The translations under genes were made by a program, and so were the position numbers. Below the pieces are notes generated by a model. The model saw only the letters and a program-made list of their open reading frames with translations. It was not told the DNA's origin and did no database searches. A stretch of DNA of 64,000 bases. It comes from an uncultured Bacteroidales bacterium (GTDB taxonomy: Bacteria > Bacteroidota > Bacteroidia > Bacteroidales > UBA932). Numbering within the stretch: the stretch's first letter is position 1; each line of letters starts with the position of its first letter. Shown piece by piece: positions 16,479 through 46,833 of the stretch. The stretch lies in assembly GCA_900316525.1 (NCBI GenBank), contig ONDF01000005.1, forward strand, positions 62,001 through 126,000. The letters run 5' to 3'.

Positions 16479-16510
16479 TTTGGAAGAAAAGTCCAAAGAC
16501 CTTATCTTTG
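16479..16510 (+). promoter_or_regulatory. Bacteroidota promoter for the metY-metX-thrA-fur operon
   Basis: TTTG at 16479-16482, exactly 20 bases, TATCTTTG at 16503-16510. It shows that the in-frame TTG at 16508 is part of the promoter and that the ATG at 16532 is the start. Confidence 0.8.
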
Positions 16511-16531
16511 TACGGAAACAATGGATTGACC

Positions 16532-17812: not shown

Positions 17813-18813
17813 TCCGCAAAGAACTCATCACGGACCTGACCTTGGAAGCCGGAGGAACCCTCTCCGGCGCCCATGTCGTGTACCATGTCTCCCAGGAGGC
17901 CTGGGACGGCCGCAAGCCCGTCATCTGGATCTGCCACGCCCTCACGGCGAACAGCGATCCCGAGGACTGGTGGCCGGAGATGGTGGGTCCGGGCAAGGCC
18001 ATCGACACGGAGAAGAGCTTCGTGGCCTGCGTGAACATGCTGGGCTCCGCCTACGGTTCCGAAGGACCGGCCCGCGAGAATCCGGCGACAGGGAAACCCT
18101 GGCTCCTGGATTTCCCGAAGGTGACGGTCCGGGATATGGTCACGGCGTCCATCGTTGTCCGCAAGGCGCTGGGTATCAGTTCGGTGGACCTCCTAATCGG
18201 CAGTTCCATCGGCGGTTTCCAGGCCATTGAATGGGCGGTGACCGAGCCCGATGTGTTCAAGCGCTGCCTGTTCATCGCGACGGCTCCGCGCGTGTCCCCG
18301 TACCTGTCGGCGACGGTGGAGGCGCAGCGCATGGCCCTGGAGGCGGACCCGACGTTCCGGGAGGCCCGGGACCTGTCGGGCGGCGCCGCCGGCCTCAAGT
18401 GCGCCCGCGCCCAGGCGCTCATTTCCTACCGCTGCTTCGAAGGCTATTGCCTCACCCAGTTCGAGGCCGATCCCGACACCCTCTTCGCCGGCCGGGCCGC
18501 TTCCTATGAGCGGTACCAGGGCGAGAAGCTGGTCCGTCGCGGGTTCGACGCCTATTCCTATCACACCCTGTGCGACGCCCTGGACAGCCACAATGTGGGC
18601 CGGGGCCGGGGCGGGGTGGACGCCGCCCTCGCGCGGATCAAGGCGCGGACGACGGTCGTCTCCATCGACACGGACGCCCTTTTCCCGCCGCAGGAATCGT
18701 CCGTCTGGGCCCGCTGGATTCCCGCGGCTGACTACATTGAAATCTCCTCCCGTTTCGGCCACGACGGCTTCCTGCTGGAAACCGCGCGGCTGACGGCCAT
18801 CCTCATGAAATAA
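17809..18813 (+). CDS. metX: Homoserine O-acetyltransferase
   Basis: A 334-residue alpha/beta-hydrolase-fold acyltransferase that makes O-acetylhomoserine from homoserine and acetyl-CoA. The nucleophile is in LIGSSIGGFQAIEWA (~128-142), NMLGSAYGSEGPA is a family marker, the acid is in SIDTDALFPP and the histidine in RFGHDGFL. It is slightly shorter than the usual 350-380 residues. Acetyl versus succinyl specificity is inferred from pairing with MetY. Confidence 0.92.
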   Translation: MIRKELITDLTLEAGGTLSGAHVVYHVSQEAWDGRKPVIWICHALTANSDPEDWWPEMVGPGKAIDTEKSFVACVNMLGSAYGSEGPARENPATGKPWLLDFPKVTVRDMVTASIVVRKALGISSVDLLIGSSIGGFQAIEWAVTEPDVFKRCLFIATAPRVSPYLSATVEAQRMALEADPTFREARDLSGGAAGLKCARAQALISYRCFEGYCLTQFEADPDTLFAGRAASYERYQGEKLVRRGFDAYSYHTLCDALDSHNVGRGRGGVDAALARIKARTTVVSIDTDALFPPQESSVWARWIPAADYIEISSRFGHDGFLLETARLTAILMK

Positions 18814-18823
18814 TAGAACGAAC

Positions 18824-21187
18824 ATGCAAGTACTGAAATTCGGAGGCACCTCCGTGGCCTCTTCCGAAGCGATGCTTCAGGTTGTCGATATCGTCCGCAA
18901 GGCCCTTGAAGAAGACCGCACGATCGTGGTCTCCTCGGCCGTGAGCGGATGTACGGACGCGCTGATCGAGACCGGCCGGAAGGCGGCCGCCCGCGACGAG
19001 TCCTACAAGACGCTCATCGAGGACCTCCGGAAGCGCCATTACAAGATCATCGGCGAACTGCTGCCGGAAGGATACCGGGAGCGGACGGCCGCATCCGTGG
19101 ACAAACTGTTCGAATCCCTGGAGGGCATCACGTACGGGGTGTTCCTGCTGGGCGAACTGAGCCATGCGAGCCTGGAAGCCATCGAGAGCTACGGCGAGCT
19201 GTTCTCCACGACCATCCTGACGGACAAGTTCCTCTCGCTGGGCATCACTTGCCAGTGGCTCGACGCCCGGGACTTCGTCCAGGTGCGCGACGGGGAAGTG
19301 GACGAGCCGGAAACCTACGCCCGGGTGGCCAAGACCGTGAATTCGAACCCGCATGTGGAACTGTTCATCGTCCCGGGCTTCATCGCCACAGACGGGAACG
19401 GCCGCGTGACCACGCTCGGCCGCGGCGGCTCCGACTTCACGGCCTCGCTGGTGGCCGTGGGCATCCACGCCCGCCGCGTGGAGATCTGGACCGACGTCCC
19501 GGGCATCATGACGGCCAATCCGAAGATTGTCCCGACCGCCCGCCCCATCCCGAACATCTCCTACCGGGCGGCGCAGGAACTGTCCCATTTCGGGGCGAAA
19601 GTCATCTATCCGCCGACCATCCAACCCGTTGTGGATGAGGGAATTCCGATTATCGTCAAAGATACCTTCCATCCGGAGGAACCGGGTACGCTGGTGGAAC
19701 GGAACCCGCCGCGCGTGCGGGACGGCATGATCGGCATCGCCCATTCCGACCACATCGCCCTCATCTCCCTGGAGGGCAGCGGCATGGTGGGCGTTCCGGG
19801 CTTCTCGTCGCGCCTGTTCGACGCGCTGAGCCGGAAGGGGATCAACATCATCCTCATCACCCAGGCCTCGTCGGTGCATTCGATGTGCATCGCCATCGCC
19901 GAGCAGGACGCCGAGGCGGCCCGCGAGGCGGCGGACGCCTGCTTCGCCTACGAGATCTCGCTGGGCCGGCTGAATCCGCTCAAGGTGGAGACGGGCTTCT
20001 CGCTCGTGTGCCTGATCGGCGACGACATCCTCGGGCACAGCGGCGCCACGGGCCGCATGCTGGCAGCCCTCGGGGCGCACAGCGTCCCGGTCCGCGCCAC
20101 GGCGCAGGGCTCCTCGGAGCGGAACATCTCCGTCATCGTCCCTTCCGTCCGGGCCGAGGTGGCCATCCGGGCCATCCACCGGGAGTTCTTCGACAAGTGG
20201 AGCAACAAGGTCATCCACCTGTTCATCGCCGGTTACGGCCGTGTCGGCAAGGCGCTGGTCGAGATGCTTTCCGAGAATGCGGCTTCCATCGCGAAGCGCT
20301 CCGGCAAGGAGCTGCGCGTATGCGGCCTCGCGAACAGCCGGAAATATGTGATCGACACGGAAGGCATCGACCTCACCAAGGCGAAGGAACGCCTGGACGC
20401 CGGAAAACCGGGCGCGGGCTATATCGATGCGGTGGCGGAACTGTCGCTGGAGAATTCCATCTTCGTGGACTGCACGGCGAACGGGGAGATCGGCTTCCGG
20501 TATCCCGCCCTGTTCCGCAGCGGCTACAGCGTGGTGGCCTGCAACAAGATCCCGTTCTCGGGCACGTACGCCCAGTTCAAGGCGCTGCAGGAGCAGGCCC
20601 ACAAGGCGGGCGTCTCCCTGCGGTATGAAACCACGGCCGGAGCCGCCCTGCCGGTGCTCGTCACGCTGGACCGCGTGGTCCAGTCCGGCGACACCCTGGT
20701 CCGCATGGACGCCGTCCTTTCCGGTACGCTCAACTACCTGATGGACAATTACAAAGGCACCGGATTCGACGAGCTGGTCGAAGACGCCCGCATCAAGGGC
20801 TACACCGAGCCGGACCCGAACATCGACCTCAGCGGCAAGGATGTTCTCCGGAAGATCCTGATCCTCAGCCGCCAGACGGGCATTCCGCTGGAAGAGTCCC
20901 AGGTCACGCTCGAGCCCATCCCGGCCGACATCGCCGACCGCTATGCCGCGGCCGCCGCGAAGGGCCTGAAACTGCGCTATGTCGCTTCCGTCGATGCCGA
21001 AGGGCACGCGACCGTGGGCCTGCAGGAAGTCGGCCCCGACAGCCCGCTCTACGCCCTGAAGGGCACGGACAACGCCATTATGATCACGACGGGCGACTAT
21101 CCCTCGCCGATGCTCATCCAGGGCGCCGGCGCCGGTACGCGCCAGACGGCGGGCGGCCTGCTGAACGACATCATGCTGACGCTGTAG
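18824..21187 (+). CDS. thrA: Bifunctional aspartokinase/homoserine dehydrogenase
   Basis: A 787-residue fusion. Residues 1-~285 are aspartokinase (KFGGTSVASSEAM at the start; GRGGSDFTASL), ~290-460 are regulatory ACT domains, and ~465-787 are homoserine dehydrogenase with the NADPH motif GYGRVGK at 470-476 and the EPDPNIDLSGKDVLRK active-site segment. It commits aspartate to homoserine, the substrate of MetX, so this operon makes homocysteine from aspartate. It could equally be called metL; feedback specificity (Thr or Met) cannot be read here. It follows metX by 10 bases. Confidence 0.95.
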   Translation: MQVLKFGGTSVASSEAMLQVVDIVRKALEEDRTIVVSSAVSGCTDALIETGRKAAARDESYKTLIEDLRKRHYKIIGELLPEGYRERTAASVDKLFESLEGITYGVFLLGELSHASLEAIESYGELFSTTILTDKFLSLGITCQWLDARDFVQVRDGEVDEPETYARVAKTVNSNPHVELFIVPGFIATDGNGRVTTLGRGGSDFTASLVAVGIHARRVEIWTDVPGIMTANPKIVPTARPIPNISYRAAQELSHFGAKVIYPPTIQPVVDEGIPIIVKDTFHPEEPGTLVERNPPRVRDGMIGIAHSDHIALISLEGSGMVGVPGFSSRLFDALSRKGINIILITQASSVHSMCIAIAEQDAEAAREAADACFAYEISLGRLNPLKVETGFSLVCLIGDDILGHSGATGRMLAALGAHSVPVRATAQGSSERNISVIVPSVRAEVAIRAIHREFFDKWSNKVIHLFIAGYGRVGKALVEMLSENAASIAKRSGKELRVCGLANSRKYVIDTEGIDLTKAKERLDAGKPGAGYIDAVAELSLENSIFVDCTANGEIGFRYPALFRSGYSVVACNKIPFSGTYAQFKALQEQAHKAGVSLRYETTAGAALPVLVTLDRVVQSGDTLVRMDAVLSGTLNYLMDNYKGTGFDELVEDARIKGYTEPDPNIDLSGKDVLRKILILSRQTGIPLEESQVTLEPIPADIADRYAAAAAKGLKLRYVASVDAEGHATVGLQEVGPDSPLYALKGTDNAIMITTGDYPSPMLIQGAGAGTRQTAGGLLNDIMLTL

Positions 21188-26622: not shown

Positions 26623-27387
26623 ATGAGAATCACCTTGCTGCAGACGGCTCCGGAGTGGGGGAATCCCGCCCAGAGCCGGGAGGATGCCCGCCGGATGCTG
26701 ATGGGTACCCTGAAGACGGACCTCGTCGTCCTTCCCGAAATGTTTTCCACCGGATTCGTCACGGACCCCGTCGGGGTGGCCGAGGAGGGAGAAGGGGACA
26801 GCCTCCGATGGATGCAGGAATACGCGCGCAGCAGGGGCTGCGCCGTCGCGGGCAGCGTGTCCACGCACGTGGACGGCACCTACCGCAACCGGTTCTATTT
26901 CGTGTTCCCGGACGGCCATTACCAGTATTATGACAAGCATCACCTCTTCACCTTTGCCGGCGAGCACGAGCGCTATACCGCCGGCGAGGAGCGGGTGGTC
27001 GTGGAGCATGCCGGCTTCCGGATCCTGCTCCAGGTCTGCTACGACCTCCGTTTCCCCGTCTTCGCGCGGAACAAGCTGGTGGACGGCAAGCCCGATTACG
27101 ACCTGATCCTCTATGTCGCCAGCTGGCCGCAGCAGCGGATCGACGCCTGGGACGCCCTCCTGAAGGCCCGCGCCATCGAGAATGTGTGCTATGTCGCGGG
27201 TGTGAACCGGGCCGGAAAGGACCCCGGAAATCTGTACTCCGGACATACCAGTTTGTATGGTCCCCGCGGGGAACTGCTTTCAATTTGTAAGGAAGGACGC
27301 ATCGACATTATCGAATCTGAACTGAAACGCCCGGTTCTGGACCAGTTCCGTCAATCCTTCCCGGCCCTCTCGGATGCTGATTATTAA
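26623..27387 (+). CDS. Nitrilase-superfamily omega-amidase
   Basis: A 254-residue carbon-nitrogen hydrolase. The Glu-Lys-Cys triad is visible: E in VLPEMFSTGF (~39), K in YYDKHHLFTFAGEHE (~105) and C in QVCYDLRFPVF (~139). The MFSTGF and YDLRFP variants match the YafV/NIT2-like omega-amidases that hydrolyse alpha-ketoglutaramate, a repair-type reaction. It is divergent from the nitroreductase. A near-consensus -7 element TATCTTCG is at 26611-26618. Confidence 0.88.
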   Translation: MRITLLQTAPEWGNPAQSREDARRMLMGTLKTDLVVLPEMFSTGFVTDPVGVAEEGEGDSLRWMQEYARSRGCAVAGSVSTHVDGTYRNRFYFVFPDGHYQYYDKHHLFTFAGEHERYTAGEERVVVEHAGFRILLQVCYDLRFPVFARNKLVDGKPDYDLILYVASWPQQRIDAWDALLKARAIENVCYVAGVNRAGKDPGNLYSGHTSLYGPRGELLSICKEGRIDIIESELKRPVLDQFRQSFPALSDADY

Positions 27388-27405
27388 GATTTTTTTGGAC
27401 TTTTT

Positions 27406-27437
27406 CTTGTTTTTTAAAAACTAATTTGCCATCTTTG
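27406..27437 (+). promoter_or_regulatory. Promoter of the ilv-leu operon
   Basis: CTTG at 27406-27409, 20 bases, CATCTTTG at 27430-27437 (one mismatch from TAnnTTTG). It would start the message about 20 bases before the leader peptide. Confidence 0.6.
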
Positions 27438-27462
27438 TTCTCGGTAACAATTTGAAACCGGA

Positions 27463-27513
27463 ATGAACATCGTACTCGTCCTTGCTCTCGTCCTTATTAT
27501 CCTTGTCAAGTAG
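27463..27513 (+). CDS. ilvL: Branched-chain amino acid leader peptide
   Basis: ATG to TAG encodes MNIVLVLALVLIILVK, 16 residues, of which 12 are Ile (3), Val (4) or Leu (5), the three end products of the operon downstream. Such a run is the signature of a ribosome-mediated attenuator. The stop codon lies 2 bases before the 5' arm of an alternative hairpin. It is too short to be found by ordinary gene callers. The symbol is used by analogy with the enteric ilvL, not by homology. Confidence 0.85.
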   Translation: MNIVLVLALVLIILVK

Positions 27514-27515
27514 AC

Positions 27516-27588
27516 GCGGACTGGAACGGCATGACGGTGTAAAGATAACATGAGCCCCTTCCAGTCCGCACTGGAAGGGGTGTTTTTT
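27516..27588 (+). promoter_or_regulatory. Attenuator: mutually exclusive antiterminator and terminator
   Basis: Terminator: perfect 11-bp arms 27555-27565 and 27570-27580 (CCCCTTCCAGT / ACTGGAAGGGG) with a 4-base loop, then seven T at 27582-27588. Antiterminator: GCGGACTGGAA at 27516-27526 pairs perfectly over 11 bp with 27559-27569, which includes most of the terminator's left arm. A ribosome stalled on Ile/Val/Leu codons leaves 27516-27526 free, so the antiterminator forms and ilvD is transcribed. A ribosome reaching the stop codon covers it, and the terminator forms. Confidence 0.88.
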
Positions 27589-27597
27589 TAGTAGTGT

Positions 27598-29430
27598 ATG
27601 AAACATCCTTTCAGAAGCAGCGTTACCTTCGAGGGACGCCGGATGGCAGGCGCCCGCGCCCTCTGGGCCGCGGCGGGCATGAAACCGGAACAGGTGGGAA
27701 AGCCGGTCATCGCGGTGGTGAATTCCTTCACCCAGTTCGTCCCCGGCCATACGCACCTGCATGAGGCCGGCCAGCTGGTCAAGGCTGAAATCGAGCGCCT
27801 GGGCTGCTATGCCGCCGAATTCGACACCATCGCCGTGGACGACGGCATCGCCATGGGCCACGACGGGATGCTGTATTCCCTCCCTTCCCGCGAAGTCATC
27901 GCGGACAGCGTCGAGTATATGGTCAACGCCCACAAGGCCGACGCGATGGTGTGCATCAGCAACTGCGACAAGATCACGCCCGGGATGCTGATGGCCGCGA
28001 TGCGGCTGAACATCCCGGCGGTCTTCGTCTCCGGCGGCCCGATGGAGGCCGGCGTCCTGGGCGACCGCAAGCTGGACCTGATCGACGCGATGGTCCAGTC
28101 GGCCGACACCTCCCTGTCCGATGCCGAGGTGGCGAAGATCGAGGCGGCCTCCTGCCCGGGCTGCGGCTGCTGTTCCGGCATGTTCACGGCCAACTCGATG
28201 AACTGCCTGACCGAGGCCATCGGCCTGGCCCTCCCCGGCAACGGGTCGGTCCTGGCCACCCACGCGAACCGGAAGGAACTCTTCCGCAAGGCCGCGGCGC
28301 TCGTCGTGGAAAATGCCTGGAAGTATTACCGGGACGGCGATGAACGCGTCCTCCCGCGCAGCATCGCGATCCGTCCGGCGTTCCTGAACGCGATGGCGCT
28401 CGATATCGCGATGGGCGGTTCCACGAACACGGTCCTGCATCTGCTGGCCGTGGCGCAGGAAGCCGGCGTGGATTTCACGATGGCCGACATCGACGCCCTC
28501 TCCCGAAAAGTCCCCTGCATCTGCAAGGTGGCCCCCAATACCGCAAAATATCACGTCCAGGATGTGAACCGCGCCGGCGGCGTCATCTCCATCCTCCGCG
28601 AACTGGCTGTCGCCGGTCTTGTCGACACCACCCTTTACCGGGTGGATGGAACCTCCCTTTCGGAGACGATGGACCGCTTCGCCATCCTGTCGGAGCACGT
28701 GACGGAGGAGGCCCTGCAGCTGTATCGCAGCGCACCCGCCGGGCGGTTCTCGACGGAACTGGGCTCCCAGGAAACCTATTACAAGGAACTGGACACCGAC
28801 CGGGAGAACGGCTGCATCCGCTCCGTCGCCCACGCCTACACGAAGGACGGCGGCCTGGCGGTGCTCCGGGGGAACATCGCGGCCGACGGCTGCGTCGTGA
28901 AGACGGCCGGCGTGGACGAATCCATCTGGAAGTTCACCGGCCCGGCGAAGGTCTTCGATTCCCAGGAAGCGGCCTGCAACGGCATCCTGGGCGGGAAAGT
29001 GAAGAGCGGCGACGTCGTCGTGATCACGTATGAAGGCCCCCGCGGCGGTCCCGGCATGCAGGAAATGCTGTACCCGACCTCCTACCTGAAGTCGGTGCAC
29101 CTGGGCAAGGAATGCGCCCTCCTCACCGACGGCCGTTTCAGCGGCGGCACGTCCGGGCTGTCCATCGGCCACATCTCGCCCGAGGCGGCGGCCGGCGGCG
29201 CCATCGGCCTGGTCCGCGACGGCGACCTCATCGAAATCGACATCCCGGCCCGTTCCATCCGCGTCCTGTTGACCGACGAGGAACTGGAGAGCCGGAGGCA
29301 GGAGGAACTCGCCCGCGGCGACAAGGCCTTCACGCCACCTTTCCGCGTGCGCGAGGTCTCTAAGAGCCTGAAGGTGTACGCCCGGATGGTCAGCTCCGCG
29401 GACAAGGGAGCAGTAAGGGTCATTGATTGA
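27598..29430 (+). CDS. ilvD: Dihydroxy-acid dehydratase
   Basis: A 610-residue iron-sulfur enzyme for the third common step of Ile/Val synthesis. Cluster cysteines are C123 in [10 protein letters not shown] and those of [17 protein letters not shown] (~186-202). The KD-type signature segments [12 protein letters not shown] and [16 protein letters not shown] are present. The length fits the long IlvD form of enterobacteria. It is the first structural gene after the attenuator and leads a ten-gene operon to ilvE. Confidence 0.96.
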
Positions 29431-29450
29431 AAGAACGATAACAAATAGAT

Positions 29451-31154
29451 ATGATTACAGGTTCGGAAGCCTTGTGGCAGTCCCTCATCGAAGAGGGCGT
29501 GGATACCGTCTTCGGGTATCCGGGCGGGCAGATCATGCCCGTGTACGACAGCCTGTGCAGCTATCGGGACCGCGTCCGCCATATCCTGGTGCGGCACGAG
29601 CAGGGAGCCATCCACGCGGCGCAGGGCTTTGCCCGCGTGAAGGGCGATCCCGGCGTGGTGATCGTCACCTCCGGTCCCGGCGCGACCAATGTCATCACCG
29701 GCGTCCACGACGCGATGACGGACTCCACCCCGGTGGTGGTCATCACCGGGCAGGTTTCGTCCGCCGCCCTGGGCACGGACGCCTTCCAGGAGGCCGACGT
29801 CATCGGCCTCACCGGCCCCATCAGCAAGTGGAACTACCAGATCCGCTCGGCGGACGAGGTGGCGTGGGCCGTCGCCCGGGCTTTCTACATCGCCCGGAGC
29901 GGCCGTCCCGGCCCCGTGGTCCTGGATTTCACCAAGGACGCGCAGGTGGGCCTGACGGATTTCAAGTACGAGAAATGCAATTTCATCCGGAGCTACGTCC
30001 CCGACCCGAAGGTCTCGGAAGTCTCCCTGAACAAGGCGGTCGCCCTCCTGAACGAGGCGGAGCGCCCCTTCGTCGTGTTCGGCCAGGGCGTGGTCCTGGG
30101 CCATGCCGAAGAAGAACTGAAGGCTTTCCTCGAGAAGGGGGACATCCCGGCGGGCTCCACGCTCCTGGGCCTCAGCGCCCTGCCTTCCGACTTCCCGCTC
30201 TACCGCGGGATGATCGGGATGCACGGAAACGTGGCCCCGAACATCCTGACGAACACCTGTGACGTGCTGGTGGCCGTCGGCATGCGGTTCGACGACCGCG
30301 TGACCGGGACGGTCTCCACCTACGCCCGCCAGGCGAAAGTCATCCACATCGACATCGACACCTCCGAGATCGGGAAGATCATTCCCGTCGAGGTGGGCCT
30401 CCGTGGCGACGCCAAGAAGGTCCTCAAGGTCCTGACGGAGCGGATGAAGGCACGCAAGCACCCCGAGTGGAACGCGAGCGTCCAGCGCTGCGACGCCGTA
30501 GAGAAGGAAAAGGTCATCGACCCGGAAGTGCACCCCGGCTCCGGCATGCTCCGGATGGGCGAGGTGGTGGACCGCGTGGTCCGCGCTTCCGAGGAGAAGG
30601 CGGTCGTCGTGACGGACGTGGGCCAGAACCAGATGATGGGCGCCCGCTACTCCCGCTTCACGCGCTCCCGCAGCTTCATCTCCTCCGGCGGCCTGGGCAC
30701 GATGGGCTTCGGCCTGCCCGCTGCCATCGGCGCCAAGGTGGCCGACCCGGGTCGCCCCGTGTGCTGCTTCGTCGGCGACGGCGGCATCCAGATGACGATG
30801 CAGGAGTTCGGCACCATCATGCAGGAGCAGGTGGGCGTGAAGATCGTCCTCCTGAACAACAACTGGCTGGGCAACGTCCGCCAGTGGCAGGAACTGTTCT
30901 TCGGCTGCCGCTATTCGGAAACCCGGATGCTGAATCCCGACTACGCGATGATCGCCCGCGCCTACGGTATCCCCTGCGTCACCGTGGAGAAGCGCGAGGA
31001 GCTGGATGCGGCCCTGGAGGCGATGTTCGCCGACGACAAGCCCTTCCTCCTGGACGTCCATGTCCTGGAAGAGGGGATGGTAATGCCCATGGTGCCCCCC
31101 GGCAAGGGCATCCACCAGATCATGATCACGGAAAACGAATGGTACAATGGATAG
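29451..31154 (+). CDS. ilvB: Acetolactate synthase large subunit
   Basis: A 567-residue thiamine-diphosphate enzyme that makes acetolactate or acetohydroxybutyrate. N-terminal FGYPGGQIMPVYD and HEQGAIHAAQGFAR (carrying the catalytic Glu) are clear, the FAD-binding middle domain follows, and the ThDP motif starts at VGDGGIQMTMQEFGTI (~441) and ends NNNWLGNVRQWQELFF. It is 20 bases after ilvD and overlaps ilvN by 8 bases, which couples the two subunits. Confidence 0.96.
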   Translation: MITGSEALWQSLIEEGVDTVFGYPGGQIMPVYDSLCSYRDRVRHILVRHEQGAIHAAQGFARVKGDPGVVIVTSGPGATNVITGVHDAMTDSTPVVVITGQVSSAALGTDAFQEADVIGLTGPISKWNYQIRSADEVAWAVARAFYIARSGRPGPVVLDFTKDAQVGLTDFKYEKCNFIRSYVPDPKVSEVSLNKAVALLNEAERPFVVFGQGVVLGHAEEELKAFLEKGDIPAGSTLLGLSALPSDFPLYRGMIGMHGNVAPNILTNTCDVLVAVGMRFDDRVTGTVSTYARQAKVIHIDIDTSEIGKIIPVEVGLRGDAKKVLKVLTERMKARKHPEWNASVQRCDAVEKEKVIDPEVHPGSGMLRMGEVVDRVVRASEEKAVVVTDVGQNQMMGARYSRFTRSRSFISSGGLGTMGFGLPAAIGAKVADPGRPVCCFVGDGGIQMTMQEFGTIMQEQVGVKIVLLNNNWLGNVRQWQELFFGCRYSETRMLNPDYAMIARAYGIPCVTVEKREELDAALEAMFADDKPFLLDVHVLEEGMVMPMVPPGKGIHQIMITENEWYNG

Positions 31155-31707
31155 CGAAGTGAAAGAATACACGGTGACCATCTACACCGAGAACCAGATC
31201 GGCCTCCTGGCGCAGATCACGAACGTGTTCACGCGCCACGGCCTGAGCATCTGGAGCCTTTCCGCGGGCGCCACCTCCATGGAAGGCGTCCACAACATCA
31301 CCATCGTGACCTCCGGCCTGGAAAAGAAGGTCCGCGAGAGCGTCCAGCAGATTGAGAAGCGCGTGGACGTGATCAAGGTTTTCTACTACACGGCCGACAA
31401 GATCGTCTACCGCGAGCTGTGCCTCTACAAGGTGCCCACGCCGGCCCTGCTCGAGTACGGCGACATTGAAACCCTGCTGAACCGCTATCACGCGCGCATC
31501 GTGGAGATGAACAAGGTGTTCACGGTCATCCAGAAGACCGGCCTGTCCGACGAGACGGCCGCCCTGCACGACGACCTCAAGCCCATCGGCGTGCTGCAGT
31601 TCGTGCGCTCGGGCCGCATCGCGGTCTCCCGCGCCGAGCAGGAGCCCGTCTTCAAGTTCCTGAAGAAACGGGAAAGGGAAAGAAATCAACAATTAAACAA
31701 CAGATAG
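31147..31707 (+). CDS. ilvN: Acetolactate synthase small (regulatory) subunit
   Basis: A 186-residue regulatory subunit. The N-terminal ACT domain (~8-80; YTVTIYTENQIGLLAQITNVFTRHGLSIWSL) binds valine for feedback control, and a C-terminal ALS_ss_C-like region follows (~95-170). The start lies inside the end of ilvB. The extra GATSMEGVHNITIVT strand is typical of Bacteroidota IlvN. Confidence 0.93.
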   Translation: MDSEVKEYTVTIYTENQIGLLAQITNVFTRHGLSIWSLSAGATSMEGVHNITIVTSGLEKKVRESVQQIEKRVDVIKVFYYTADKIVYRELCLYKVPTPALLEYGDIETLLNRYHARIVEMNKVFTVIQKTGLSDETAALHDDLKPIGVLQFVRSGRIAVSRAEQEPVFKFLKKRERERNQQLNNR

Positions 31708-31709
31708 TT

Positions 31710-32759
31710 ATGGCAAAGATCAATTTCGGCGGTGTCGACGAGAACGTCGTGACCCGCGAGGAGTTCACCCTGGAACATGCACGCGAAGTCCTGAAGGACG
31801 AAACCATCGCCGTCATCGGCTACGGCGTCCAGGGCCCCGGACAGTCCCTGAACCTGAAAGACAACGGCTTCAACGTCATCGTCGGCCAGCGCAAGGGCAA
31901 GACGTATGACAAGGCCGTCGCCGACGGCTGGGTCCCGGGCGTGAACCTCTTCGAGATCGAGGAGGCCTGCGAGAAGGGCACCATCATCCAGTTCCTGGTC
32001 TCCGACGCGGCCCAGATCGCGATCTGGCCCACCGTGAAGAAGCACCTGACCGCTGGGAAGGCCCTGTATTTCTCCCATGGCTTCGGCATCACCTACAAGG
32101 AACGCACCGGCATCGTCCCGCCCGCGGACGTGGACGTGATCATGGTGGCCCCGAAGGGCTCCGGCACCTCCCTGCGCCGGCTCTTCCTGCAGGGCCGCGG
32201 CGTGAATTCCTCCTACGCCGTCTACCAGGACGCCACCGGCCGCGCCCTCGACCGCACGCTCGCCCTGGGCATCGGCGTGGGTTCCGGCTACCTGTTCGAG
32301 ACCGACTTCAAGCGCGAGGTCTATTCCGACCTCACCGGTGAGCGCGGCACCCTGATGGGCGCGATCCAGGGCATCCTGTCTGCCCAGTACGAGGTGCTCC
32401 GCGAGCACGGCCACAGCCCGTCCGAGGCCTTCAACGAGACCGTCGAGGAGCTGACGCAGTCCCTGATGCCGCTCTTCGCCGAGAAGGGCATGGACTGGAT
32501 GTACGCGAACTGCTCCACCACCGCCCAGCGCGGCGCGCTGGACTGGATGGGCCCGTTCCACGATGCCACCAAGCCCGTGTTCGAGAAGCTGTACCAGCGG
32601 GTGGCCAGCGGCGAGGAGGCCCAGGTCTCCATCGACGCGAACTCCAAGCCGGACTACCGCGAAGGCCTGGAGAAGGAACTGAAGGCGCTCCGCGAGAGCG
32701 AGCTCTGGCGCACCGGCGCCGCCGTCCGTAAGCTCCGTCCCGAAGAGATCGACCGATGA
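31710..32759 (+). CDS. ilvC: Ketol-acid reductoisomerase
   Basis: A 349-residue NADPH-dependent class I enzyme that isomerises and reduces acetolactate. The Rossmann motif is [19 protein letters not shown] at ~35-53, with RKGKTYDKA giving the NADP phosphate contacts; [11 protein letters not shown] and the metal-binding [19 protein letters not shown] follow. GYGVQGPGQ differs a little from the usual GYGSQGHA. It is 2 bases after ilvN and overlaps leuA by 4. Confidence 0.95.
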
Positions 32760-34249
32760 GCGACCGGGTGTACATATTCGACACCACGCTCCGCGACGGG
32801 GAACAGGTCCCGGGATGTCAGCTGAACACCGTGGAGAAGATCCAGGTCGCCAAGGCCCTGGAGCTCCTCGGGGTGGACGTCATCGAGGCCGGTTTCCCGA
32901 TCTCCTCGCCGGGTGATTTCAACTCGGTCGTGGAGATTTCCAAGGCGGTGACCTGGCCCACGGTCTGCGCGCTGTCGCGGGCCGTGGAAAAGGACATCGA
33001 CATGGCCGCGGAGGCGCTGAAGTACGCCAAGCGGGGCCGGATCCACACCGGGATCGGCACCTCCGACTCGCACATCCGCTACAAGTTCAATTCCACCCGG
33101 GAAGAGGTCCTGGAACGGGCCGTCCGCGCCGTCAAGTACGCGAAGAAGTACGTCGAGGACGTTGAATTCTATGCGGAGGACGCCGGCCGTACCGACAACG
33201 AGTTCCTCGCCCGCGTGGTGGAGGCGGTGATCAAGGCGGGCGCGACTGTGGTGAACATCCCCGACACGACGGGCTATTGCCTGCCGGAGGAGTTCGGCGC
33301 CAAGATCAAGTACCTGATGGAGCACGTGGACGGAATCCACAAGGCCATCATCTCCACCCACTGCCACAACGACCTCGGGATGGCGACGGCCAACACGATG
33401 GCCGGCCTGCTGAACGGCGCCCGCCAGTGCGAGGTCACGATCAACGGCATCGGCGAAAGGGCGGGGAACACCGCCCTGGAGGAGATTGCGATGATTCTGA
33501 AGGCCCATCACGGGATTCCGCTTGAGACGAACATCAACACCAAGCGCATCTATCCCACGAGCCGGCTCGTGTCGTCCCTGATGAACATGCCGGTGCAGCC
33601 GAACAAGGCCATCGTGGGCAAGAACGCCTTCGCCCATTCGTCCGGCATCCACCAGGACGGTGTCCTGAAGAACGCCGAGACCTACGAGATCATCGATCCG
33701 AAGGACGTGGGCATCGACACGAACTCCATCGTCCTGACGGCCCGCAGCGGCCGGGCGGCGCTCAAGTACCGCCTGGAAGTGAACGGCGTGAAACTGGACG
33801 AGAACAAGCTGGACGAGGTGTACGAGCAGTTCCTCCGCCTCGCCGACAGCAAGAAGGAGATCCACGACGACGACATCCTGATGCTCGCCGGGGCCGACCG
33901 GGCCGCCGCGCGCCACATCAAGGTGGACTGGCTTCAGGCGACGAGTGGCATCGGCGTGCGGCCGGTGGCCTCCGTGGGCCTGGACATCGCCGGGGAGAAG
34001 TTCGAGGCGGCCGCGACCGGCAACGGCCCGGTGGACGCCGCCATCAACGCGCTGCGGCAGATCGTCCGGCGCCATGTCACCATCAACGAGTTCACCATCC
34101 AGGGTGTGACCAAGGGGTCCGACGACTGCTGCAAGGTCCACATGCAGGTGGAGAACGAGGGACGGGTGTACTACGGATTCGGCGCTTCGACCGACATTGT
34201 GACGGCCTCCATCGAGGCCTATGTGGATTGTATCAACAAGATTGTATGA
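32756..34249 (+). CDS. leuA: 2-isopropylmalate synthase
   Basis: A 497-residue first enzyme of leucine synthesis. The metal/substrate motif [12 protein letters not shown] is near residues 7-18, the zinc HxH is H202-C-H204 in [25 protein letters not shown] follows, and the C-terminal LeuA dimer/leucine-binding domain (~380-497) is complete, so it should be feedback-inhibited by leucine. It overlaps ilvC and leuC by 4 bases each. Confidence 0.94.
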
Positions 34250-35640
34250 ACACCCTCTTTGACAAAATCTGGGATGCGCATGTCGTCCAGCACGTGGAAG
34301 GCGGGCCCGACCAGCTGTACATCGACCGGCTCTACTGCCACGAGGTGACGAGTCCGCAGGCGTTCGACGGCCTGCGCGAGCGGGGCATCCGCTGCCTGCG
34401 TCCGGAGAAGATTATCTGCATGCCGGACCACAATACCCCGACCGAGGGCCAGGAAAGGCCCATCGAGGACCCGGTTTCCAAGAAGCAGGTGGACGCCCTC
34501 GCGGCCAACGCCGCCGAGTTCGGGCTCACGCATTACGGGATGATGGACCCGGACAACGGCATCATCCACGTCGTGGGACCGGAGAAGGGCCTGTCCCTGC
34601 CGGGCATGACCATCGTCTGCGGCGACTCGCATACGTCGACGCACGGGGCCGTGGGCGCCGTGGCGTTCGGCATCGGCACCTCTGAGGTGGAGATGGTCAT
34701 GGCTTCGCAGTGCATCCTGCAGCAGAAGCCCAAGTCGATGCGCATCCGCATCGAGGGCGCCCTCGGACGGGGCGTGACCGCCAAGGACATGGCGCTGTTC
34801 CTGATGAGCAAGCTCACCACCAGCGGCGCGACGGGCTACTTCGTGGAGTACGCCGGTTCCGCCGTCCGGGCCCTGTCCATGGAAGGCCGCCTGACGCTGT
34901 GCAACCTGTCCATCGAGATGGGCGCCCGCGGTGGCTTCATCGCCCCGGACGACATCACCTTCGCCTACCTCCAGGGCCGCGATTACGCGCCGAAGGGGGA
35001 GGACTGGGACAAGGCCGTCGCCGCCTGGAGACAGCTCCGCAGCGACGACGACGCCATCTTCGACCGGGAAGTCGTCTTCGACGCGGCCGAGATCGCGCCG
35101 ATGCTCACCTACGGCACCAATCCCGGCATGGGCATCGCCATCACGGGCTATCTGCCCACGCTGGACGATATCCCCGCCGAGGCCCAGGCATCCTTCTGCA
35201 AATCCTTGAAATACATGGGCTTCCGCCCGGGTGACATGCTCCTCGGAAAGCCCGTGGACTATGTTTTCCTCGGCGCCTGCACGAACGGCCGCATCGAGGA
35301 CTTCCGCGCATTCGCGTCCATCGCCGCCGGCCGCCAGAAGGCCCCCGGCGTCGTGGCCTGGCTCGTCCCCGGCTCCTGGAAGGTCCGCCGCCAGATCGAG
35401 GAAGAAGGCCTGGACAAGATCCTGGAAGCCGCCGGCTTCGAGATCCGCCAGCCGGGCTGTTCCGCCTGCCTGGCGATGAACCCCGACAAGGTCCCCGCTG
35501 GAAAATACTGCGTCTCCACGAGCAACCGGAACTTCGAAGGCCGGCAGGGCCCCGGTTCCCGGACGCTCCTCGCCAGCCCGCTCACGGCGGCCGCCGCGGC
35601 GGTCACCGGTTTCATCACTGATCCCCGCGTACTGCTATGA
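34246..35640 (+). CDS. leuC: 3-isopropylmalate dehydratase large subunit
   Basis: A 464-residue aconitase-family subunit holding the [4Fe-4S] cluster. [14 protein letters not shown] is the standard LeuC start and chooses the ATG at 34246, which overlaps the leuA stop. [43 protein letters not shown] and [33 protein letters not shown] hold the cluster and substrate residues, quoted here in pieces as family markers (about residues 130-155, 347-362 and 405-437). Confidence 0.95.
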
Positions 35641-36227
35641 AACAGAAATTCGACATCATCGAGAGCACCTGCGTCCCGCTTCCGCTCGAGAACGTGGACA
35701 CGGACCAGATCATTCCCGCCCGCTTCCTGAAGGCGACCACGCGGGACGAACAGTTCTTCGGCGACAACCTGTTCCGCGACTGGCGCTACCGTCCCGACGG
35801 CACGCCGGATCCGGACTTCGTCCTGAACGATCCGCGCTATGGCGGCGAGATCCTCGTCGCGGGCCGCAACTTCGGCTCCGGCTCCAGCCGCGAACACGCG
35901 GCCTGGGCCATCGCCGGCTACGGCTTCAAAGTCGTGATTTCCAGTTTCTTCGCGGACATCCACAAGAACAACGAGCTGAACAACTTCGTCCTGCCGGTGG
36001 TCGTGACCCCGTCCTTCCTGGAGGAGCTGTTCGCCTCCATCGAGGCCGATCCCGCGACGAAAGTCCGGGTGGACGTCCCGAACCAGACCGTGACGAACCT
36101 CGCCACGGGCCGAAGCCAGTCCTTCGAGCTGAACGCGTATAAGAAGTACTGCCTGATGAACGCGCTGGACGACATCGACTACCTGCTCCTCCAGAAGGAG
36201 AAGATCGAAGCCTACGAAAAACGATGA
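35637..36227 (+). CDS. leuD: 3-isopropylmalate dehydratase small subunit
   Basis: A 196-residue small subunit. [14 protein letters not shown] at ~20-33 and the swivelling-domain motif [14 protein letters not shown] (~83-96) are diagnostic. It works with LeuC and overlaps it, and leuA2, by 4 bases each. Confidence 0.95.
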
Positions 36228-37750
36228 TCGAAATCCTGGACACCACCCTGCGTGACGGCGAGCAGACCGCTGGCGTCTCGTTCAACCCGGACGAGAAGCT
36301 GGCCATCGCGCGCCTGCTCCTGGATGAACTGAAGGTCAACCGGATCGAGGTGGCCTCGGCGCGGGTTTCCCGCGGCGAACAGGAGGCTTTTGCCAAGATC
36401 TGCGCCTGGGCCTCCACCTGCGGGAAGCTCGGCGCCGTGGAGGCGCTCGGCTTCGTGGACGGCGGCCTGTCCGTGGACTGGATCCGTTCCGCCGGGGGAC
36501 AGGTGATGAACCTGCTGACGAAGGGCTCCCTCCGCCACGTGACCGCCCAGCTGCGGAAAACCCCGCAGGAGCACCTGGACGACATCCTCCGGGACATCCG
36601 CATCGCCGTTTCGAAAGGAATGGAGGTGAATGTGTACCTCGAGGACTGGTCCAACGGAATGGCCGACTCGCCGGACTACGTGTTCTTCCTGGTGGACGCC
36701 CTGAAGGACGCGCCCGTGAAGCGGATCATGCTGCCCGACACCCTGGGCATCCTGGACCCGACCCGGGCCTCGGCGTATTGCCGGACGATGGTGGAGCGCT
36801 ATCCGTCCGTCCATTTCGACTTCCATCCGCACAATGACTACGACCTCGCCGCGGCGAACGCCTTCGAGGCGGTCCGCGCCGGCGTCAAGGGCCTGCACAC
36901 GACCGTGAACGGGCTGGGGGAGCGGACCGGCAACCTGCCCGTGTCCAGCGCCATCGGCATCCTCAACGATCACCTGAAGGTGGAGAACACCCTGGATGAG
37001 AGCCGCCTGATGCACGTGTGCCGGTATGTGGAAACGATTTCCGGCGTGCGGATCCCCGCGAACAAGCCCCTCGTGGGCGAGTTCGTCTTCACGCAGACGA
37101 GCGGGGTCCATGCCGACGGCGACCGCAAGGGCGGGCTGTACCAGAACGCCCTCCTGCCGGAGCGCTTCGGCCGTCACCGCCACTACGCCCTCGGCAAGAC
37201 CAGCGGCAAGGCGAACATCGTCAAGAACCTGGAATCCCTGGGCATTACCCTGACGCCGGAGCAGATGAAGCAGGTCACGGCCCGCGTCGTCGAGCTCGGA
37301 GACAAGAAGGAGAGCCTGACGCCGGAGGATCTCCCGTTCATCGTCGCGGACGTCCTGAAAGGGGACGTGTCCACGACGGCCCCGGACCGGATCCACATCA
37401 TCAACTACAGCCTGCAGCTCGCCCGCGGGATGCGTCCGATCGCGAACATCCGGATCGACATCGACGGGACCGAATACGAGGAGGCCTCGGCCGGCGACGG
37501 CCAGTACGACGCCTTCATGAAGGCGCTCTGGATCATCTACGACCGCCTGGGCCGCAAGCATCCCCGCCTGACCGACTATGTCGTGAAGATCCCGCCCGGG
37601 GGCAAGACCGACGCCCTCGTGGAGACGACCATCTCCTGGGACTGGCAGGGCAAGGGCTTCAAGACCCGGGGCGTGGACTCCGACCAGGCCGAAGCGGCCA
37701 TCAAGGCCACGGTCAAGATGTTGAATTTAATCGAAAACAACCTGATATGA
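36224..37750 (+). CDS. Second LeuA/CimA-like acyltransferase (isopropylmalate or citramalate synthase)
   Basis: A 508-residue DRE-TIM enzyme, clearly different from LeuA at 32756. [15 protein letters not shown] is at ~6-20, zinc motif HPHND at ~205, NGLGERTGN follows, and a C-terminal LeuA dimer domain is present. It is conserved at this place, between leuD and leuB, in Bacteroidales leucine clusters. It may be a citramalate synthase, which would give a threonine-independent route to isoleucine, or a second isopropylmalate synthase. The motifs do not decide. The window has no threonine dehydratase gene, which fits either reading. Confidence 0.85.
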
Positions 37751-38796
37751 AACTCAAGATTGCAAAACTTCCCGGCGACGGCATCGGCCCGGAAGTCGTG
37801 GCCCAGGCCGTCAAAGTGGTGGACGCCGTCTGCGCCCGCTTCGGACACGAGGTGTCCTATACCTATGGCTATGTGGGCGCCTGCGCCATCGACCGCTTCG
37901 GCGACGCCTATCCGGCCGAGACCCATGCCCTGTGCATGGACAGCGACGCCGTCCTCTTCGGCGCGGTGGGCGATCCCCGGTTCGACAACGACCCCACGGC
38001 CAAGGTGCGCCCGGAACAGGGCCTGCTGGCCATCCGGAAGCAGCTGGGCCTGTACGCGAACCTCCGTCCGGTGGAGACTTTCAAGTCCCTGGTGGACAAG
38101 TCCCCGCTGAAGACCGAGCTCGTGGACGGGGCCGATTTCCTCTGCATCCGGGAACTCACCGGCGGCATGTATTTCGGCGAGAAGGGCCGGAAGGACAACG
38201 GGAACACCGCCTATGACACCTGCATCTACAGCCGCGCCGAGGTGGAGCGCATCCTGAAGCTCGCCTTCGAGTACGCCGGCCGCCGCCGCAAGCACCTCAC
38301 GGTCGTGGACAAGGCCAATGTGCTGGAGTCCTCCCGCCTGTGGCGCCAGGTCGCGCAGGAGATGGCGCCGAACTACCCGGACATCCAGGTCGACTACATG
38401 TTCGTGGATAACGCCGCCATGCAGCTCATCCGCTGGCCCAAGTTCTTCGACGTCCTGGTGACCGAGAACACCTTCGGCGACATCCTCACGGACGAGGCCA
38501 GCTGCATCAGCGGCTCGATGGGCCTGCTGGCATCGGCCTCGGTGGGCGAGCACACCTCCCTGTTCGAGCCCATCCACGGCTCCTACCCGCAGGCGGCCGG
38601 CAAGGACATCGCGAACCCTGTCGCGGCCATCCTGTCGGCGGCGATGATGTTCGAATACGCCTTCGGCCTGATGGACGAGGGCAAGGCCATCCGCGAGGCC
38701 GTCGCCGCCTCCCTGGAGGCCGGCGTCACGACCGAGGACCTCGGCGGCAGCTATTCCACCTCCGCGGTGGGTGATTGGATCGCATCGAAAATCTAA
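37747..38796 (+). CDS. leuB: 3-isopropylmalate dehydrogenase
   Basis: A 349-residue NAD-dependent decarboxylating dehydrogenase. [12 protein letters not shown] is at ~7-18, [10 protein letters not shown] and [13 protein letters not shown] mark substrate binding, [16 protein letters not shown] carries the catalytic Lys, and the NAD site [20 protein letters not shown] is near 275-294. The ATG at 37747 overlaps the leuA2 stop; longer readings of this frame upstream are a shadow. Downstream ilvE follows after 6 bases. Confidence 0.95.
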
Positions 38797-38802
38797 GACA
38801 TT

Positions 38803-39843
38803 ATGGCACAGATAGATTGGAAGACTTTAGGCTTTGACGCCTATCGGACCCGCACGGTCGTCGTCTCTCACTTCAAGGACGGCAAGTGGTCCAAACCCGA
38901 ATCGACGGAGACCTTCTCCTTCACGTTCGATCCCTTCGCGCAGGTGTTCCACTACGCGATTTCCTGCTTCGAGGGCCTGAAGGCCTTCCGGCAGAAGGAC
39001 GGCCGCGTGGCGATGTTCCGCCCCGACCAGAACGCCGCCCGCCTGCAGCGGACCGCCGACTACCTGGGCATGCCCTGCCCGGACGAGAAGATGTTCTACG
39101 AGATGTGCGAGGCCTGCATCCGCGGCAACATGGAGTTCCTCCCGCCGTACGGCCTGGGCGCGTCGATGTACCTGCGCCCGCTGCTGGTGGGCATGCATCC
39201 CCAGATGCAGCTCGTGCCGTATCCGGAGGCCGTTTTTGCCGTGATGTGCGCCCCCGTGGGCTCCTACTACGGCGCGCACCTGAAGTCCTGCGCGGCCGTG
39301 ATCCCGGGCAACTATGACCGGGCGGCGCCGAAGGGCTCCGGCAGCTACAAGATTGGCGCGAACTACGCGAACACCTTCAAGCCCTACAAGTTCGCCCACG
39401 AGCAGGGCTATGCGGAGCTCCTGTACCTGAATTCCTCCACCCGCGAGTTCGTCGACGAGTTCGGCTCGTCCAACTTCTTCGGCATCAAGGGGAACAAGTA
39501 CATCACCCCGCTGTCCGACAGCGTCCTTCCGTCCATCACGAACAAGACCCTGCAGCAGGTCGCCATCGACCTGGGCATGGAAGTGGAGAAGCGGCCGGTC
39601 CCGCTCGAGGAACTGGAAACCTTCGAGGAAGTGGGCGGCTGCGGCACCGCGGTGGTCATCACCCCGCTCTCGCACATCGACATGAAGCCGGTGCTCGAGC
39701 AGCCGGAGGTCTCCCGCGAATTCCGCTACTGCCCCGATGGCGAGGTGGGCCCGAAGTCCACGGCCCTGTACAAGCGCATCCGCGCCATCCAGGACGGCGA
39801 ATTCCCCGACGAGCACGGCTGGTGCCGGTTCGTGGAGGTGTAA
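38803..39843 (+). CDS. ilvE: Branched-chain amino acid aminotransferase
   Basis: A 346-residue fold-type IV PLP transaminase that makes Ile, Val and Leu from their keto acids with glutamate. FHYAISCFEGLKAFRQKDG (~46-64), the PLP-lysine segment KIGANYANTF (~183-192) and EVGGCGTAVVITPL (~275) are clear. It ends the operon, so all steps from pyruvate/ketobutyrate to the three amino acids are encoded together here except threonine deamination. Confidence 0.95.
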   Translation: MAQIDWKTLGFDAYRTRTVVVSHFKDGKWSKPESTETFSFTFDPFAQVFHYAISCFEGLKAFRQKDGRVAMFRPDQNAARLQRTADYLGMPCPDEKMFYEMCEACIRGNMEFLPPYGLGASMYLRPLLVGMHPQMQLVPYPEAVFAVMCAPVGSYYGAHLKSCAAVIPGNYDRAAPKGSGSYKIGANYANTFKPYKFAHEQGYAELLYLNSSTREFVDEFGSSNFFGIKGNKYITPLSDSVLPSITNKTLQQVAIDLGMEVEKRPVPLEELETFEEVGGCGTAVVITPLSHIDMKPVLEQPEVSREFRYCPDGEVGPKSTALYKRIRAIQDGEFPDEHGWCRFVEV

Positions 39844-39878
39844 GGAACCACCCCTGCGACCTACGCGACTCACCTTAT

Positions 39879-39903
39879 AGTTCGAGTCTCGTTTTCCGCT
39901 CCA
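39879..39903 (+). other. tRNA-Gly 3'-end fragment (probable attachment-site scar)
   Basis: The sequence AG-TTCGAGT-CTCGT-TTTCCGC-T-CCA reads as the T-loop, T-stem 3' strand, acceptor 3' strand, discriminator U and encoded CCA of bacterial tRNA-Gly. The expected 5' part (GCGGAAA acceptor, D-arm, anticodon) is absent: upstream bases are unrelated and the T-stem 5' strand does not pair. Such 3' fragments are left when an element integrates into a tRNA gene. It lies 36 bases after ilvE and at the start of the lower-GC accessory block. Confidence 0.7.
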
Positions 39904-39906
39904 AAA

Positions 39907-39934
39907 GCCTCGCAGCAATGCGGGGCGTTTTTTT
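39907..39934 (+). terminator. Terminator after ilvE/tRNA-Gly fragment
   Basis: Stem GCCTCGCA (39907-39914) and TGCGGGGC (39919-39926), loop GCAA, then G and seven T. It closes the ilv-leu transcript. The remaining 39935-40123 is AT-rich, and I see no clear TAnnTTTG promoter for the sigma factor. Confidence 0.88.
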
Positions 39935-40123
39935 GTTGGTCTTGGTTGGGAACTGTGATTTCGACAACGTGTTAACAATTCAACACTTAATAACATGCGC
40001 GTGCCAAACCTGACCCTTTTTCTTTTCGACCGAGCACGGTTTAAGCGTTATTATTCGTTTTGAGAGAAAAAAACACTTTTTCTTCTTGACTTTTTCCTTT
40101 TTTTGCGTCTATATCAGTGAGGT

Positions 40124-46751: not shown

Positions 46752-46752
46752 C

Positions 46753-46832
46753 AACTCGGGGTATCGGGCCAGGTGGCCCGGTTGAGAGCATACCCGTGAA
46801 CCTGATGCGGTTCATACCGCCGGAGGAAAGTA
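46753..46832 (+). promoter_or_regulatory. TPP riboswitch (THI element)
   Basis: The conserved thiamine-pyrophosphate aptamer is readable: CGGGGTATC, a variable P3a stem (GGGCC AGGT GGCCC), GTTGAGAGCATACCCG (the CUGAGA core with C to U), GAACCTGATGCGGTTCATACCGCC, and GGAGGAAAGTAT, which also contains the ribosome-binding site of the next gene. Because the ribosome site lies at the aptamer's 3' end, control is probably by blocking translation when TPP is bound. Confidence 0.93.
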
Positions 46833-46833
46833 T

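What the first reader, a model, noticed from the sequence alone, without database searches (positions are those of the whole stretch)
27463..27588. Ribosome-mediated attenuator with an Ile/Val/Leu leader peptide before ilvD
A 16-residue peptide with 12 branched-chain residues is followed by two mutually exclusive 11-bp hairpins and a T-run, all in the spacing needed for classical attenuation. The mechanism is textbook in enteric bacteria. I know of no experimental proof in Bacteroidota, where transcription-translation coupling has been little studied. One attenuator would control all ten genes through ilvE.
Basis: partly seen in the sequence, partly recalled or inferred. Interest (0 to 1): 0.78.

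Follow-up and report, generated by a model that had tools for sequence, protein, structure and literature searches.

The report
Branched-chain amino acid attenuator in Bacteroidota
In front of ten genes that appear to make leucine, isoleucine and valine, this bacterium's DNA encodes a tiny peptide packed with those same amino acids, followed by two competing RNA hairpins that are predicted to let a slowed ribosome switch the genes on when these amino acids run short; the same layout recurs in many relatives.

Summary
Window 27463-27513 encodes MNIVLVLALVLIILVK (12 of 16 residues Ile/Val/Leu), followed by an 11-bp antiterminator (27516-27526 with 27559-27569), an 11-bp terminator (27555-27565 with 27570-27580) and seven T, 8 bases before ilvD.

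Leader, terminator and competing antiterminator occur together in 57 of 167 ilvD upstream regions, against 3 of 5010 shuffles, and in 0 of 22 named non-Bacteroidota loci. Both helices covary. Segment 2 starts 8-14 nt after the codon run in 37 of 56 loci, about a ribosome's reach. Leaders favour Leu CTA, Ile ATT and Val GTC. Before hisG, 17 of 22 family loci, this genome included, carry His-codon leaders and none an Ile/Leu/Val leader.

In print I saw only hints for Bacteroidota, no experiment. The leader was not found in 27 of 58 named Bacteroidota loci, and few sampled loci outside Bacteroidales carry the full element. Amino-acid response is untested.

The parts
27407..27437 (+). predicted promoter: TTG (27407-27409) and Bacteroidota -7-like box CATCTTTG (27430-27437; consensus TAnnTTTG, recalled)
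   Evidence: 46 of 56 loci with the full element have an exact TAnnTTTG within 90 nt upstream of the leader start, against 3.9 of 56 in base shuffles. The window's own box matches 5 of 6 fixed positions, which is no better than chance by itself (5 of 6 is the commonest best score in shuffles, 34.6 of 56). No start site was mapped.
27463..27513 (+). leader peptide ORF MNIVLVLALVLIILVK with stop TAG; 12 regulatory Ile/Leu/Val codons, no CTG
   Evidence: relatives; codons
27516..27526 (+). segment 2: 5' arm of the antiterminator (GCGGACTGGAA)
27559..27569 (+). segment 3: 3' arm of the antiterminator (TTCCAGTCCGC); overlaps the terminator 5' arm and loop
27555..27580 (+). terminator hairpin: 27555-27565 with 27570-27580, loop CCGC
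27583..27589 (+). T7 tract of the intrinsic terminator
27598..29430 (+). ilvD, dihydroxy-acid dehydratase, first gene of the cluster
   Evidence: TIGR00110, 770 bits against cut-off 618
29451..31154 (+). ilvB, acetolactate synthase large subunit
31147..31707 (+). ilvN, acetolactate synthase small subunit
31710..32759 (+). ilvC, ketol-acid reductoisomerase
32756..34249 (+). leuA, 2-isopropylmalate synthase
34246..35640 (+). leuC, 3-isopropylmalate dehydratase large subunit
35637..36227 (+). leuD, 3-isopropylmalate dehydratase small subunit
36224..37750 (+). citramalate synthase-like gene (best match CimA, 631 bits, below the model cut-off of 950)
37747..38796 (+). leuB, 3-isopropylmalate dehydrogenase
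38803..39843 (+). ilvE, branched-chain amino acid aminotransferase
39907..39935 (+). terminator-like hairpin with T run after ilvE, likely end of the operon

Best explanation
This is most likely a classical ribosome-mediated transcription attenuator, in which the speed of a ribosome on a leader peptide rich in Ile, Leu and Val codons is predicted to decide whether RNA polymerase goes on into the ten-gene ilv-leu cluster. Shown by sequence: the leader ORF, two helices that share segment 3, a T7 tract, and their conservation. Inferred: when charged Ile-, Leu- and Val-tRNA are plentiful, the ribosome reaches the stop codon, covers about 12 nt beyond it (to about 27525, 10 of the 11 bases of segment 2), segment 3 is free to pair with segment 4, and transcription stops at the T tract. 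When one of the three is short, the ribosome stalls on an earlier codon (at Ile13 or before, segment 2 is wholly free), segment 2 pairs with segment 3 before segment 4 has been made, the terminator cannot form in time, and transcription continues through ilvE.
For: Leader, terminator and antiterminator together in 57 of 167 ilvD upstream regions against 3 of 5010 shuffles; near-duplicates are few (53 distinct of the 56 analysed in detail, 160 of 167 overall). The I/L/V run is in the leader frame, best of the three, in 55 of 56 loci. Distance from the last I/L/V codon of the best 12-codon stretch to the first paired base of segment 2: median 12 nt, 8-14 nt in 37 of 56; in the window 11 nt from Leu14 and 8 from Val15. 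Segment 3 bases change together with both partners (for example A-T-A in 25 and G-C-G in 12 of 41 at one column). On a 14-sequence alignment 6 of 11 antiterminator pairs and 8 of 12 terminator pairs show changes on both sides, reached by 0 and 1 of 500 shuffles. Folding with RNA free from 27514 gives P(2:3) 0.96-0.99 from completion of segment 3 to completion of segment 4; with RNA free only from 27526, P(3:4) is 0.98 once segment 4 is made. Amino acid matches pathway: in ilvD upstreams 71 I/L/V leaders and 1 His leader of 167; in hisG upstreams 17 His leaders and 0 I/L/V of 22. Over 53 loci, leader codons depart from each locus's own ilvD usage: CTA 40 against 6.2 expected, ATT 154 against 78, GTC 125 against 60.
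Against: No expression, translation or coupling data were available. No ATG-started leader was found within the upstream DNA in 27 of 58 named Bacteroidota ilvD loci (four of the 58 have under 300 nt of it; at least one of the 27, L017, has the run without an ATG), 5 of 19 genus loci and 14 of 28 family loci. Only 3 of 40 loci sampled mostly outside Bacteroidales pass all three criteria. At equilibrium, with the whole terminator and T tract made, a stalled ribosome still leaves P(3:4) 0.71, so the switch must rest on order of folding. One of five measures for the terminator helix (further pair types) is not above shuffles (63 of 500 reach it). The window's -7 box is one base off consensus, and its own Ile codons (2 ATC, 1 ATT) do not follow the ATT bias of the relatives. 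Segment 2 can pair weakly upstream (P about 0.65 in the window, mean 0.62 over 56 loci) but that fold is hardly better than shuffles (mean z -0.7), so the outcome without translation is unclear.
Confidence: 0.9

Rival explanations
1. The terminator/antiterminator pair is a switch worked by a bound protein or small molecule (riboswitch-like), and the ORF is incidental.
For: Competing hairpins alone do not prove a ribosome; many switches of this kind are known (general knowledge).
Against: No Rfam match there at gathering threshold; at relaxed threshold only four sub-threshold matches, the best at E 0.31 and a PreQ1 hit on the other strand at 16 of 39 bits. The I/L/V content is frame-specific, changes codons while keeping residues, and is replaced by His before hisG. 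The stretch between segments 2 and 3 is variable in sequence and length.
Confidence: 0.04
2. The leader ORF is a small hydrophobic membrane peptide with a function of its own.
For: A run of I/L/V would insert into membranes; small proteins of this kind exist (general knowledge).
Against: Peptide sequence is not conserved across relatives, only its content of regulatory residues; synonymous codon choice is biased, which a peptide function does not predict; the His leaders before hisG are not hydrophobic.
Confidence: 0.02
3. Ribosome-dependent control by another exit: Rho, or masking of the ilvD start, rather than the intrinsic terminator.
For: The T tract ends only 8 bases before the ilvD ATG, so the terminator hairpin could also affect initiation; Bacteroidetes generally lack SD sequences (abstract of PMC3155529 in the listing).
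Against: A strong hairpin with T7, which recurs with its own T run in relatives, is the signature of intrinsic termination.
Confidence: 0.03
4. An ordinary terminator of the upstream gene (26623-27387) with a chance leader.
For: The element lies between that gene and ilvD.
Against: Segment 2, its distance from the run, and covariation; 3 of 5010 shuffles.
Confidence: 0.01

Closest known systems
ilvGMEDA, ilvBN and leu attenuators of enteric bacteria
   Same: Leader peptide with the pathway's own codons, antiterminator against terminator, placed before the cognate operon; CTA enriched in the relatives' leaders, as in the Salmonella leu leader with its three CUA codons (PMC1183508, passages).
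   Different: Shorter leader here (16 codons; enteric leaders of about 28-32 residues are recalled, not looked up), no strong 1:2 protector, Bacteroidota-type promoter, one leader for a combined ilv-leu-cimA-like ten-gene cluster; no match to an Rfam leader family. The window's own leader has no CTA.
ilvBNC attenuator of Corynebacterium glutamicum
   Same: Attenuation of branched-chain synthesis outside enterics (PMC11857589, title and abstract start in the listing).
   Different: Actinobacterial, reported as a three-hairpin model.
Leader-peptide attenuators inferred in Flavobacterium psychrophilum
   Same: Same phylum, same idea, upstream of amino-acid operons (passage of PMC9723704).
Bacteroid-trp RNA (Rfam RF01692)
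   Same: Cis-regulatory RNA candidate in Bacteroidetes (Table 1 of PMC2864571); its link to trp genes and a leader is recalled, not seen.
   Different: Does not match here; other pathway.

Membership tests
ribosome-mediated transcription attenuator | short leader ORF with codons for the amino acid made by the operon | tested here: met
   12 of 16 residues; operon annotated ilv/leu
ribosome-mediated transcription attenuator | intrinsic terminator between leader and first gene | tested here: met
   (by sequence and folding; termination itself not measured)
ribosome-mediated transcription attenuator | antiterminator that excludes the terminator | tested here: met
   segment 3 shared; covariation
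ribosome-mediated transcription attenuator | spacing such that a ribosome at the stop masks segment 2 and a stalled one frees it | tested here: met
   the 12-nt reach is from PMC4833913 (passage)
ribosome-mediated transcription attenuator | conserved leader with changed codons in relatives | tested here: met
   not found in many relatives too
ribosome-mediated transcription attenuator | promoter upstream of the leader | tested here: inconclusive
   strong motif in relatives, but the window box is 5 of 6, not above chance alone
ribosome-mediated transcription attenuator | leader is translated and read-through responds to Ile, Leu or Val supply | not testable with these tools
   needs expression data
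T-box riboswitch | T-box covariance model match | tested here: not met
   no match in the window at gathering threshold nor in 27350-27650 at E up to 10
known Rfam leader families and Bacteroid-trp | model match | tested here: not met

The most novel reading that the evidence does not exclude
Bacteroidales run classical ribosome-mediated attenuation as a standing way to control at least two pathways (Ile/Leu/Val and His), which requires their RNA polymerase and ribosome to be closely coupled, and their leaders have been tuned to the starvation-sensitive synonymous codons (Leu CTA, Ile ATT, Val GTC) in a way convergent with enteric bacteria.
Probability: 0.7. Interest if true: 0.62.

Novelty: new member of a known kind. 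Interest (0 to 1): 0.47.

Why it matters
Bacteroidota are major gut and environmental bacteria, and I found little on transcription-translation coupling in them (8 held papers have both 'Bacteroides' and 'transcription-translation coupling', none of them about that by title). A recurring, codon-matched attenuator in front of ilvD and another before hisG give a ready-made in vivo test of coupling in this phylum, and suggest how these pathways could be regulated without a dedicated repressor. The codon bias can be tested against the selective tRNA charging theory developed for E. coli.

Tried and rejected
Looked for known RNA families at the site: none over threshold. Looked for a trp counterpart: no chorismate-binding family match in the genome. 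Looked upstream of metY at the head of the cluster holding the first homoserine dehydrogenase and upstream of the second one (L163): no threonine or methionine leader seen by eye, no statistic run. Looked for a 1:2 protector hairpin: weak in the window (z 0.0 and -0.3) and not clearly selected in relatives (mean z -0.7, though segment 2 pairs upstream with mean probability 0.62). An E. coli-type promoter scan found nothing before the leader, as expected for this phylum. The first leader detector (first ATG, at most 60 aa) missed L005, L010, L017 and L165, which a stop-to-stop scan shows to hold an I/L/V run, so counts are low; one search uses inner ATGs and thereby also picks up one non-Bacteroidota locus (1 of 22).

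Rows dropped or not used: of L001-L129, L098 (35% identity) and L101 (no hit) were dropped, leaving 127; with 40 picked by me from the phylum search this makes 167. The list of phylum matches was cut short by the tool (247 genomes searched, 183 with a hit), and the 40 were chosen for spread over families, not at random. Loci L133-L162 were fetched but not analysed. Seven of the 167 upstreams are near-duplicates of others. In one search the operon codon usage counted leuB in a wrong frame; one search corrects it (CTG 62%, CTT 3% of 322 Leu codons); the 53-locus comparison is not affected. The alignment misplaces the window's own row by one base in both arms, which lowers its pair count. One search used each locus's own predicted pairs, so it leans towards pairing; searches use a structure taken from one relative (L082). 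L086 was listed for that alignment but left out of the 14. Shuffles kept base composition only, those dinucleotides.

Full report
What is there. The leader peptide MNIVLVLALVLIILVK is encoded at 27463-27513. Two bases lie between the stop codon and segment 2 (27516-27526), which pairs perfectly with segment 3 (27559-27569). Segment 3 lies inside the terminator hairpin 27555-27580, which is followed by T7 and, 8 bases later, the ATG of ilvD. The antiterminator stretch folds at -24.3 kcal/mol and the terminator stretch at -24.2, so neither wins on stability alone; access and order of folding decide.

Chance. No shuffle out of 5000 of the upstream region gave an ATG-started ORF with 11 or more I/L/V in 12 codons. 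Taking leader, terminator and antiterminator together, 57 of 167 real ilvD upstream regions qualify and 3 of 5010 shuffled ones do. By group, with the detector that looks at one leader per locus, the full element is in 28 of 58 named Bacteroidota loci, 0 of 22 named loci of other phyla, 14 of 19 genus loci (the window's own included), 11 of 28 family loci and 3 of 40 loci sampled from elsewhere in the phylum. Those three are L173 (same class), L178 (same class, leader far upstream) and L196 (another class). Counting leaders alone with inner ATGs: 31 of 58, 1 of 22, 14 of 19, 14 of 28, 8 of 27 (L165-L191: 26 from the same class and L165 from the same order) and 3 of 13 in other classes. Some of these lack the rest of the element: L194 and L198 have a leader but no terminator-antiterminator pair, L169 only a weak hairpin, and L185, L187 and L191 have a terminator but a weaker antiterminator of -6 to -8 kcal/mol. 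So the element is common in Bacteroidales, hinted at in other members of the phylum, and not found in many.

Conservation shows function. Peptides change freely but stay rich in I/L/V; the run is in the leader frame in 55 of 56 loci. The nearest relative (L092, ilvD 96% identical) reads MINVLVIALALILLVK. Segment 3 varies, and segments 2 and 4 vary with it. On a fixed alignment of 14 close loci, 6 of 11 antiterminator pairs and 8 of 12 terminator pairs show changes on both sides; 0 and 1 of 500 shuffles reach this, and no sliding of the partner does. One further measure for the terminator, the number of pair types, is not unusual (63 of 500). The tool's own caution applies: related sequences can exceed shuffles.

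Geometry. From the last I/L/V codon of the best 12-codon stretch to the first paired base of segment 2 is 8-14 nt in 37 of 56 loci, median 12; the rest range from 4 to 43 (counted from its list). In the window the measure is 11 nt from Leu14, or 8 from Val15. A ribosome is said to cover up to 12 nt beyond the stop codon (PMC4833913, passage). In the window a ribosome on the stop codon would cover to about 27525, 10 of 11 bases of segment 2; one stalled with Ile13 or an earlier codon would leave segment 2 free; stalling at Leu14 or Val15 would cover 1 or 4 bases. Partition functions agree: with RNA free from 27514, P(2:3) is 0.99 when segment 3 is out and 0.96 when segment 4 is complete; with RNA free from 27526, P(3:4) is 0.98. 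Against this, at equilibrium with the T tract included, the stalled case gives P(2:3) 0.27 and P(3:4) 0.71, so antitermination has to be kinetic. Without any ribosome, 2:3 is favoured until segment 4 is complete, then 1:2 (0.65) plus 3:4 (0.98).

Codon choice. Over 53 loci, leader codons were compared with draws from each locus's own ilvD usage: CTA 40 against 6.2 expected, CTG 34 against 66.8, ATT 154 against 78.0, ATC 36 against 86.2, GTC 125 against 59.9, GTA 14 against 58.1. In the window, none of five Leu codons is CTG, which makes up 62% of the 322 Leu codons in the ten genes, and three are CTT, which makes up 3%; but it has no CTA, and two of its three Ile codons are the common ATC. Elf and Ehrenberg (PMC1183508, passages) report that leader codons in E. 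coli are those most sensitive to supply, CUA for Leu. The loci are related, so these counts are not independent events; an RNA-folding reason for some codons is not excluded.

A second attenuator and a specificity control. Upstream of hisG in the same genome lies MNRNDISKLHHHPVSRD, then GGCGG, a hairpin and a T run, with an exact TAACTTTG box before it. Of 22 hisG loci in the family, own genome included, 17 have an ATG-started leader with three or more His in seven residues. Before hisG there are 17 His and 0 I/L/V leaders of 22; before ilvD, 71 I/L/V and 1 His of 167. I did not test the His hairpins statistically. The match of amino acid to pathway is the strongest argument for sensing by the ribosome.

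The operon. Ten genes run from ilvD to ilvE with gaps of at most 20 bases or short overlaps; nine meet an NCBIfam cut-off for their function and the eighth is CimA-like, below cut-off. The only + strand terminator-like sites in 27300-40300 are the attenuator and one at 39907 after ilvE. Control of all ten by one attenuator is therefore likely, not shown; an E. coli-type promoter-like site at 29427-29455 lies before ilvB (3 such sites in the stretch, 1.8 expected), and internal promoters of Bacteroidota type were not scanned for.

Prior work. An open-licence library of papers was searched. It yields a sentence on leader-peptide attenuation in F. [quoted passage not shown] thetaiotaomicron (PMC7366714, passage), and the Bacteroid-trp motif in a table (PMC2864571). 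None of these passages reports an experiment on attenuation. Subscription papers are mostly not held; I recall a 2004 FEMS Microbiology Letters comparative study that includes Bacteroidetes/Chlorobi, but could not open it. So this is a new, well-supported member of a known kind in a phylum where I found no experimental test, rather than a new mechanism.

Noticed in passing
L164 (own genome, contig C30), upstream of hisG; also L205-L225: His-codon leader peptide, hairpin and T run before hisG in the own genome; His leaders in 17 of 22 hisG loci of the family, own included.
   Followed up: partly
own genome G000: No match to the chorismate-binding family (trpE-type enzymes) although the genome is rated 98% complete, suggesting tryptophan auxotrophy.
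   Followed up: no
genus genomes: Only 18 of 61 genus genomes have an ilvD-family match (10 of 26 of the better ones), so branched-chain synthesis seems often lost in this genus.
   Followed up: no
window 36224-37750: A CimA-like second isopropylmalate-synthase homologue sits in the operon, suggesting an isoleucine precursor made from pyruvate via citramalate.
   Followed up: partly
window 16508-21187: Gene cluster that looks like metY, metX and an aspartate kinase-homoserine dehydrogenase (by eye; the last by family); a second homoserine dehydrogenase lies on contig C70.
   Followed up: no
window 46747-46845 and 45595-45947: TPP riboswitch (+) and class A RNase P RNA (-), both over Rfam gathering scores.
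   Followed up: no
L084, L091, L094, L095, L097: Five genus members with ilvD but no ATG-started I/L/V leader within 400 nt; L091, L094 and L095 share an upstream region of another kind.
   Followed up: no
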